A stretch of 64,000 bases of DNA from Aeoliella mucimassa (GTDB taxonomy: Bacteria > Planctomycetota > Planctomycetia > Pirellulales > Lacipirellulaceae), in assembly GCF_007748035.1 (NCBI RefSeq), contig NZ_CP036278.1, forward strand, positions 2,108,001-2,172,000, given 5' to 3'. The translations under genes were made by a program, and so were the position numbers. Below, in pieces: positions 17,937-38,800 of this stretch (its first letter is position 1; each line of letters opens with the position of its first letter). The notes beneath the pieces are model-generated. The model worked only from the letters and a program-made list of their open reading frames with translations. It had not been told where the DNA came from and searched no databases.

Positions 17937-19018
17937 CGCGCGGCAATCCTTTGTCGCAGCGGGTGAGCAGAACACGGCCCGCCATTCTGCCAGAACCAGC
18001 AGCCTGGTGGGAGGGCAGTTTGCCCAGGGCGAGTGCTGGCATCGCGAAAGTAAGCAGCGTGCAAGTTGGCCCTACGTGTCCCATTTTTCCTCTCCTTTTC
18101 GGGCCTCTCCATTTTTTTCAGGTTCGCCAGTTTCCCGCCCTGTACGAAATAGATTCCCATCGCTGAGCAAATAGATTCCCAATTTTCTCATCGATGGGAA
18201 AATTGAATCTCCGCCCACGCTACAAAACCAGTGCTTTTCGGCCTCGAATAGATTCCCATTTCCCAAAACGCATCGAGTGGGAATCTATTTTCGCCGTGGG
18301 AATCAATCGCAAGTCGTTGGTGGGTAACAAGTTGCATTAACACCTCCACGGAAAGTGCCCAAAATAGATTCCCATAGGTGGGAAAGTATTTTTGGGGAGG
18401 AGTCAGGAAACAGGATTCGGGGGACAGGGGAGTTTGGGATATATGATTTCTGAATGATGATTTCTGAGTTGCGAATGTCATCTTGAGGGAGCTTCCAGCG
18501 ACTGAAAGATCTAGCCTACAGCTTAAAGCCTTAAGCCTAGAGCCAATAAACCTTCCAGCGACGCAGCCCCACCAACGCTTTTCCAACGAGCGCAGCAGCG
18601 AACGCTCACGCGGGCAACCCTTCGCCTGCGTGTCGCCAGTAATCCAACATTTAGATAAACATCACATCTAATTCACCACCTTTCATAAGAAGCCAACAGC
18701 CGATAGCTGAAAGCCGACAGCCTTAAGTACCTGTCCATTGGAACACTATTGGTGGCCAATTTCCAGCGGAAACTGGGCTCTTTTAGAAAGCGTTTTGCCC
18801 GCTATCGCAGGGGGAAGAGTGGGAGATTCTCCCATTCTGGCCAGATGGTAACGCAGCCAAAAAATCGAACGACGAATCGGCAGCAGCGACGCTCGCAATG
18901 CCTGCTTGGGTGCAAGCATGCGGAGTAATAGCATCCAAGCAGGTAAGCAATCGATGCTGCCGGTTACCGAATACGCTAGCGATCGAATGGACTAGCTAAC
19001 TGGGCTGCGTGTGCGTGG
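17937..19018. other. Long intergenic region with a repeat element
   Basis: About 1.1 kb without a convincing gene. It contains repeat element copy A (18147-18632). The remaining 390 bp toward the oxidoreductase hold only short open frames with no start signal. No tRNA, CRISPR or riboswitch is seen. Confidence 0.6.
18147..18632 (+). repeat. Dispersed intergenic repeat, copy A
   Basis: A sequence of about 490 bp that recurs in inverted orientation at 38296-38800, by eye about three-quarters identical. Boxes AATAGATTCCCAT (or their complement) occur at 18147-18160, 18169-18182, 18246-18259, 18277-18291 and 18362-18375, some facing each other to form inverted pairs. Shared blocks include CATTTCCCAAAACGCATC and TGTCATCTTGAGGGAGC, in the same order in both copies. 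No coding capacity is evident; an open frame on the minus strand is composed of repeat boxes. Confidence 0.85.
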
Positions 19019-37819: not shown

Positions 37820-38295
37820 CGTTTCCCCCCGATAAGATTAGAACATCGTCAAGCTATCCCAGACGATAGGGAGTGGCTCCATTTGTTTCCATTATTATTC
37901 CGGCCTTGTGCCGTGTCATGACCTAGCGAAGATATTCACGCCCCAAGTAAACACCTAAAGCGGTATTTGTAGACAAAAAACTACGGTTCGACTTATTTCA
38001 TCTTGGCTAATAGTATGCTTGTGCCATCTGACGGTGCCTAATAGCTGTTTTCCCTGGTGGGGGTTGGTACTGTTCGACGTAGCCTTTTTCACGCTACCTA
38101 AGACTAGCTGCGGTGTTATGCGTGCAATATCGTCACTCTGCACTGTCGGGCAGCTTAAGGAGAACCTTTTCTTCGTCGCTCAACACTTTTCACTGGAAAA
38201 TGGCCACCTGTGGTGGTCTAATGAACAGGTGGCTGAGGCTGTTGGCTTATTGATGAAAGGAGGGGAGTGAGATGTGATGTTTCCGAGGAACTCGA
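37820..38295. other. AT-rich intergenic stretch
   Basis: About 475 bp upstream of the T5orf172 gene. It should hold that gene's promoter. A plus-strand frame at 38019-38270 (83 codons) ends LFFVAQHFSLENGH...AEAVGLLMKGGE, but has no ribosome site and I cannot support it as a gene. It may be a remnant of acquired DNA. Confidence 0.4.
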
Positions 38296-38800
38296 ACGCT
38301 TAACGACGCGCTGGCGATGGTTTGCCGACGTGGGCGTTCGCTGCTGCGCGGTTGGTTAAGCGGCCGTGGGGCTGCGTCGCTGAAAGCTCCTGGACCCACG
38401 CTACGGGGCGCTCGTTGATAGCGCGTTCGAAATGGCTGGCTGAGATCTTTCGGTCGCTGGAAGCTCCCTCAAGATGACATCCGCAAGTCAGAAATCACCA
38501 TTCAGAAATCACCATTCAGAAATCATAAATCCAAACTCCCCTGGCCCCCGAATCCTGCTCCCTGACTCCTCCCAAAAATAGTTTCCCATGGGTGGGAATC
38601 TATTTTGGGCACATTGATCGGAGGTGTTGGTGTAACTCACTGCATACAAACGACTTGCGATTGTTTCTCATCGCAAAAATAGATTCCCATCGGATGCGTT
38701 TTGGGAAATGGGAATCTATTCGAGCGCGAAAACCGCTTGTTTTATAGGGTGGGCTCGGATTCAATTTTCCCATCGGTGGGAACATTGGGAATCTATTTCT
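38296..38800 (-). repeat. Dispersed intergenic repeat, copy B (inverted)
   Basis: The reverse complement of this segment aligns with 18147-18632. Box-pair AAAATAGTTTCCCAT / ATGGGTGGGAATCTATTTT lies at 38575-38606; further boxes lie at 38677-38690, 38708-38720 and 38785-38798. The conserved block around the TCATCTTGAGGGAGC sequence and the GCGCAGCAGCGAACGC sequence occur in the same order as in copy A. It separates the low-GC T5orf172 region from the NagB operon. Confidence 0.85.

What the first reader, a model, noticed from the sequence alone, without database searches (positions are those of the whole stretch)
18147..18632. A roughly 490-bp intergenic element present twice in opposite orientation
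The segment at 18147-18632 matches the reverse complement of 38296-38800 over nearly its full length, with shared blocks in the same order and most differences being scattered substitutions. Both copies are packed with AATAGATTCCCAT boxes, some as facing inverted pairs that could form hairpins. There is no transposase, no CRISPR-type spacing and no plausible protein. It could be a MITE-like mobile element, a structured non-coding RNA, or a chromosomal site bound by a DNA-organising protein. I know of no named element with these boxes.
Basis: seen in the sequence. Interest (0 to 1): 0.75.

Follow-up and report, generated by a model that had tools for sequence, protein, structure and literature searches.

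The report
Species-specific mosaic intergenic repeat with boxes
The pair of look-alike gaps between genes belongs to a family of about 140 copies of a non-coding element found only in one planctomycete species, probably an unusual "hitchhiking" mobile repeat whose exactly preserved 12-letter boxes are recognised by a still unknown protein and whose copies keep at least about 12,000 letters apart.

Summary
Confirmed and larger than reported. The genome is Aeoliella mucimassa Pan181 (6,608,792 bp). Both window copies (18148-18777 +; 38797-38186 -) belong to a family of ~139 elements, nearly all intergenic. Boxes are 99.6% conserved across 64 copies while linkers are 21% divergent; divergent subfamilies keep the boxes. 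No ORF, Rfam hit, terminal inverted repeat or target duplication was found. The family is absent from 3 congeners, 39 other family genomes and 391 further Planctomycetota genomes. A congener has a near-empty orthologous site. Copies avoid each other: 3 gaps <9 kb versus 19 expected. An IS200-type element (5 of 9 copies) and IS110 relatives insert into it, as IS621 does into REPs. RAYT-like genes carry no boxes within 1.5 kb. Best reading: a non-autonomous, BIME/REPIN-like mobile mosaic element whose boxes are sequence-specific binding sites; the mobilising enzyme is unidentified. Main rival: spread copies now maintained as chromosome-organising sites. Structured RNA is not supported, because no compensatory changes were found. 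Mobility is inferred, not observed.

The parts
18148..18777 (+). element copy 1, whole (a weakly similar 3' extension runs to about 18810)
   Evidence: nhmmer 652 bits over model positions 2-618 of 619; edges by all-against-all coverage
18148..18159 (+). upstream 5'-array box, 22 bp before the main box
18170..18211 (+). main head box plus imperfect hairpin H1 (AATAGATTCCCAATTTTCTCATCGATGGGAAAATTGAATCT)
18247..18289 (+). hairpin H2: two boxes facing each other across a fixed 19-nt gap
18358..18395 (+). hairpin H3: box facing an imperfect box
18396..18728 (+). modular, length-variable middle (heptamer-like words, GATGTCATCTTGA..GAAAGATCT module, GCAGCAGCGAACGC module)
18729..18777 (+). conserved 3' tail ACCTGTCCATT..GGTGGCCAATTTCCAGCGGAAACTGG
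   Evidence: 140 tails genome-wide, control 0
38186..38797 (-). element copy 2, whole
   Evidence: nhmmer 566 bits (genome 2146812-2146186)
38785..38797 (-). main head box of copy 2
38678..38720 (-). hairpin H2 of copy 2
38577..38604 (-). hairpin H3 of copy 2
38186..38233 (-). 3' tail of copy 2

Best explanation
It is a high-copy, non-autonomous intergenic mobile element, a mosaic repeat comparable to BIME/REPIN or BOX repeats, that spread within the A. mucimassa lineage. Shown: about 139 dispersed copies with sharp 5' edges and a common tail, no ORF, no terminal inverted repeats, no target duplication, absence from relatives, a near-empty orthologous site, invariant boxes at fixed spacing, and a minimum-distance effect. 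Inferred: a sequence-specific DNA-binding protein acting in trans reads the 12-bp boxes (20-22-bp array plus paired boxes in the head), assembles a nucleoprotein complex on the fixed-length head, and is or recruits the enzyme that moves the element; binding at existing copies disfavours new insertions nearby (target-immunity-like), giving the exclusion zone. IS elements that insert into copies are passengers, not the motor. The enzyme is not identified.
For: Copy number and dispersal: 643 boxes, 130 heads, 131 perfect hairpins, 140 tails with control 0, about 139 merged elements. In 2.4 Mb, 54 elements; of the 35 inspected, all lie between genes (only IS ORFs overlap them), in every gene arrangement. 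Near-empty site: 120 bp in A. straminimaris versus 1053 bp here between the same two genes. Absent from congeners, family and 391 other phylum genomes and from plasmid, phage and viral-contig collections. Boxes 99.6% conserved against 21% deviation in 110 linker columns; 7 insertions and 16 deletions in 64 x 222 positions, mostly in two decayed copies. Divergent subfamily keeps exact boxes and a related tail. Array spacing 20-22 bp in 37 of 39 cases. Under-dispersion: 3 gaps <9 kb versus 19 expected, 0 of 5000 simulations; also against random intergenic placement, p about 0.001.
Against: No mobilising enzyme found. Every over-long copy whose content was read contains an IS110-, IS5- or IS200-type element, not an autonomous version; one (4663046) was not read. 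No target motif or target duplication to prove insertion. Copies are 80-90% identical and not recent, so current mobility is not shown. Regular spacing and box invariance fit host function equally well.
Confidence: 0.6

Rival explanations
1. Spread copies have been kept by the host as chromosomal sites: a nucleoid or domain-organising protein binds the boxes about every 45 kb, and selection acts on each copy where it lies.
For: Exact box conservation with fixed head length while linkers drift; only 2 box differences in 336 positions among nearest pairs against 9.1% elsewhere; under-dispersed positions; intergenic placement.
Against: Absent from all congeners, so not a conserved chromosomal system. 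Several copies are interrupted by IS elements in the middle or directly at a box. No link to replication direction. No candidate binding protein.
Confidence: 0.2
2. A RAYT (TnpA-REP) or IS200/IS605-type single-strand transposase moves the element by its hairpins, i.e. it is a true REP/REPIN-type family.
For: Hairpins, no inverted ends and no target duplication; 13 Y1 transposase matches in the genome; an IS200-type element integrates right after TCTATT at the foot of the box palindromes.
Against: RAYT-like Y1 genes (L327, L328, L332) carry no boxes within 1.5 kb, whereas RAYT genes are always flanked by their REPs (PMC2817692). The IS200-type copies have their own, different ends and behave as insertions into existing elements. 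No replication-strand orientation bias.
Confidence: 0.12
3. A family of structured non-coding RNA genes.
For: Head folds better than shuffles as RNA (z -4.4) and as DNA (z -4.9).
Against: Stem positions are invariant with essentially no compensatory change over 64 copies; the same box is equally preserved unpaired in the 5' arrays; no Rfam match even at E 1; no orientation relation to neighbouring genes.
Confidence: 0.05
4. A single old duplication of one intergenic stretch.
For: None beyond the two window copies.
Against: About 139 copies genome-wide.
Confidence: 0.01

Closest known systems
REP / BIME / REPIN repeats with RAYT transposases
   Same: More than 100 intergenic copies, palindromic units in alternating orientation, species-specific, non-coding, targeted by IS elements (IS110-family IS621 into E. 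coli REPs, PMC11208160).
   Different: 500-1000 bp mosaic, far longer than single REPs; 12-bp boxes in a 20-22-bp array plus a fixed 222-bp head; no RAYT gene with boxes found.
BOX elements of Streptococcus pneumoniae (from memory)
   Same: Modular 5' part, variable middle and 3' part; intergenic; non-autonomous.
   Different: Unrelated sequence; no invariant-box array or exclusion spacing known to me there.
STAR elements of Staphylococcus (PMC3532100)
   Same: Interspersed intergenic repeats with internal spacers; located at different loci in each species; suggested to be maintained by selection or molecular forces.
   Different: From memory, no fixed head, no hairpin tail and no composite of constant order.
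MITEs, including Tn3- or Tn7/Mu-like derivatives
   Same: Non-coding, many copies; minimum distance resembles target immunity; 20-22-bp repeated sites resemble TnsB or MuA end sites (from memory).
   Different: No terminal inverted repeats, no target duplication; no Mu-transpos_C protein found in the genome, though the control genomes gave no hit either.

Membership tests
REP/BIME with RAYT | RAYT gene flanked by two inverted copies of the repeat | tested here: not met
   L327, L328 and L332 (long Y1 proteins) have no boxes within 1.5 kb
REP/BIME with RAYT | More than 100 intergenic palindromic copies | tested here: met
   131 perfect box hairpins, about 139 elements
Classical DDE MITE | Terminal inverted repeats | tested here: not met
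   0 of 44 copies have an inverted box within 90 bp after the tail
Classical DDE MITE | Target-site duplication | tested here: not met
   Flank k-mers match no more often than shuffled pairs; exact 3' end is uncertain
IS200/IS605-derived element | Ends shared with an autonomous IS200/IS605 copy | tested here: not met
   The IS200-type element has different ends (ATCCAACC..TTCAGT) and inserts into the repeat
IS200/IS605-derived element | Insertion 3' of a fixed short target | tested here: inconclusive
   Base before the first box is never T and usually G or A, with no clear target word
Target-immunity transposon (Mu, Tn7, Tn3) | Insertions avoid existing copies | tested here: met
   host selection could give the same pattern
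Target-immunity transposon (Mu, Tn7, Tn3) | Cognate transposase and AAA+ partner present | tested here: inconclusive
   No Mu-transpos_C match, but the controls did not ring either; AAA+ partner not tested
Structured ncRNA | Covarying base pairs | tested here: not met
Structured ncRNA | Transcription | not testable with these tools
   no RNA-seq available

The most novel reading that the evidence does not exclude
A selfish repeat has been turned into a chromosome-wide set of about 140 protein-assembly sites: an unknown protein binds fixed arrays of AATAGATTCCCA boxes at intervals of some 45 kb, with a roughly 12-kb exclusion distance, and so shapes the planctomycete chromosome in one species only.
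Probability: 0.15. Interest if true: 0.8.

Novelty: new variant of a known kind. Interest (0 to 1): 0.58.

Why it matters
No high-copy intergenic element of this design turned up in my paper searches for planctomycetes. It combines invariant, helically phased boxes with a modular body and a strong minimum distance between copies, which makes a testable case of either immunity-like self-avoidance by a non-autonomous repeat or capture of a repeat for chromosome organisation. It also shows the REP-IS621 relation repeated in another phylum: IS110 and IS200 types home in on a species-specific repeat.

Tried and rejected
Autonomous copy: all over-long copies read hold IS110, IS5-like or IS200-type insertions. 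Coding: variable columns show no 3-base phase (29/27/22). RNA: no covariation, no Rfam match. Replication-linked orientation: the + bias is alike in both halves, so rejected. Paralogous empty site: the only hit was a 142-bp repeat inserted into an upstream box, so uninformative for the element's own ends. Tail search in congeners: excess over the reversed control is similar in unrelated genomes, and the few inspected hits from congeners did not resemble the tail. Reverse transcriptase genes: no boxes nearby. Second orthologous site (OmpA-like gene): the element lies at a synteny break, so it is not a clean empty site.

Full report
WHERE IT IS. The window is position 2,108,001-2,172,000 of a single 6,608,792-bp contig. 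That length equals the published one for Aeoliella mucimassa Pan181 (PMC13315336; PMC7717034). The host is therefore a Lacipirellulaceae planctomycete.

OBSERVATION. The two copies are real and opposite. They are two members of a large family. Genome searches give 643 boxes at up to one mismatch (control 0), 130 heads, 131 perfect facing box pairs and 140 tails (control 0). Merging these lists gives about 139 elements. An nhmmer scan of 2.4 Mb gives 54 elements, extrapolating to about 149 per genome.

ANATOMY. From 5' to 3': 0-4 upstream boxes at 20-22 bp steps (37 of 39 spacings); a main box that starts hairpin H1; hairpin H2 made of two boxes facing each other across 19 bases; hairpin H3 made of a box and an imperfect partner; a modular middle with heptamer-like words; and a tail ACCTGTCCATTAGAACACCACAGGTGGCCAATTTCCAGCGAAAA. 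Head-to-tail distance is mostly 400-560 bp. About 15 copies share a longer 3' extension of up to 450 bp, several ending in CCACTGCTGG...CCAGCAGTGGCACC.

CONSTRAINT. In 64 aligned heads the boxes are 99.6% conserved and 71 further columns equally so, while 110 linker columns deviate in 21% of cells. Some linker columns are close to random. The head has almost no indels: 7 inserted and 16 deleted bases in 64 x 222 positions, most of them in two copies. The H2 stem shows no meaningful compensatory change. Divergent copies (for example genome positions 693810, 891427, 2208187, 4947046, 5090369) keep exact boxes, although the rest can hardly be aligned. I read this as sequence-specific protein sites at fixed distances, not as an RNA fold. 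That is inference. Variable sites do not follow codon phase.

DISTRIBUTION. No match to the paired-box pattern in 391 other Planctomycetota genomes. The 12-base box appears at most four times in any relative against 586 here. The head and tail are not found in the genus or family, nor in plasmid, phage or viral collections. In A. straminimaris the two genes around copy 1 are separated by about 120 bp instead of 1053 bp. The element is therefore a lineage-specific gain at that place, or less likely a loss in the relative.

PLACEMENT. Of 35 elements examined for gene context, all lie between predicted genes, apart from IS genes inside them, with no preferred gene arrangement. Orientation is biased to the + strand (83:47, p 0.002), alike in both chromosome halves, which I cannot explain. 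Copies avoid each other. Genome-wide only 3 gaps are under 9 kb against 19 expected (none of 5000 simulations as low), with a coefficient of variation of 0.64 against 0.95. Against random intergenic placement in 2.4 Mb, p is about 0.001. Target-immunity-like avoidance or selection for spacing can both give this.

PASSENGERS. An IS200-type element (Y1 transposase, PF01797) has nine copies or remnants; five sit in elements, each directly after the TCTATT that ends an inverted box, and a sixth lies in what looks like a divergent relative (p 2e-4 for 5 of 9 against the intergenic share). IS110-family elements lie in the middle module of three elements. An IS5-like element with 27 identical copies in 2.4 Mb lies in or next to six. 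E. coli IS621, of the IS110 family, targets REPs in a comparable way (PMC11208160).

MECHANISM. No inverted ends and no target duplication were found, so a classical MITE is rejected. No RAYT-like gene is flanked by boxes, so strict REP-RAYT membership is not met, although the element works like a BIME or REPIN in copy number, placement and IS attraction. The best-supported explanation is a non-autonomous mobile mosaic repeat moved in trans by an unidentified box-recognising system (0.6). The strongest rival is that spread copies are now maintained as chromosome sites (0.2).

LIMITS. Mobility was not observed. Only 2.4 Mb was read base by base. Element ends are defined by loss of similarity, not by an insertion junction. 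Gene calls come from a simple in-house finder. The claim of selection at each place cannot be separated from selection along transposition lineages without strain data.

Noticed in passing
genome 6526681, 4299627, 4148888, 2675460, 3885758 (L322, L326, L325, L324, L331): An IS200-type element (about 585 bp) integrates after TCTATT, always at the foot of an inverted box in the repeat; other copies (L321, L323, L329, L330) use TCTATT or TCTTTT elsewhere.
   Followed up: yes
genome 16591-18302, 6274852-6276572, L039: IS110-family elements (two identical, one related in the other orientation) sit in the middle module of the repeat; the two identical ones use the same site, near AGTAGGGTGGGTCCAGGAGC.
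   Followed up: partly
27 places in 2.4 Mb, e.g. genome 309006: An IS5-like element has 27 copies that are 100% identical over 780 bp, suggesting a very recent burst.
   Followed up: partly
genome about 4799910-4800050, 1925899, 652742: A 142-bp palindromic repeat (TTTATTCTGAAGG...GGGGGATCATTTACTCC) occurs at least three times, once inserted into an upstream box.
   Followed up: no
whole genome: The element is biased to the + strand (83:47 heads, 89:51 tails) in both replichores alike; unexplained.
   Followed up: partly
middle of elements; also G001, G013, G021, G033: Heptamer-like words (AGGAATCAGGATTC, AGCCGACAGCTGAAAGCC, TTTCTGAATGATGATTTCTGA) recur in several Lacipirellulaceae genomes without the element.
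   Followed up: no
genome 2068376 (L338) versus L339-L341: The element downstream of an OmpA-like gene lies at a synteny break: congeners have a hisH-like gene directly after that gene.
   Followed up: partly
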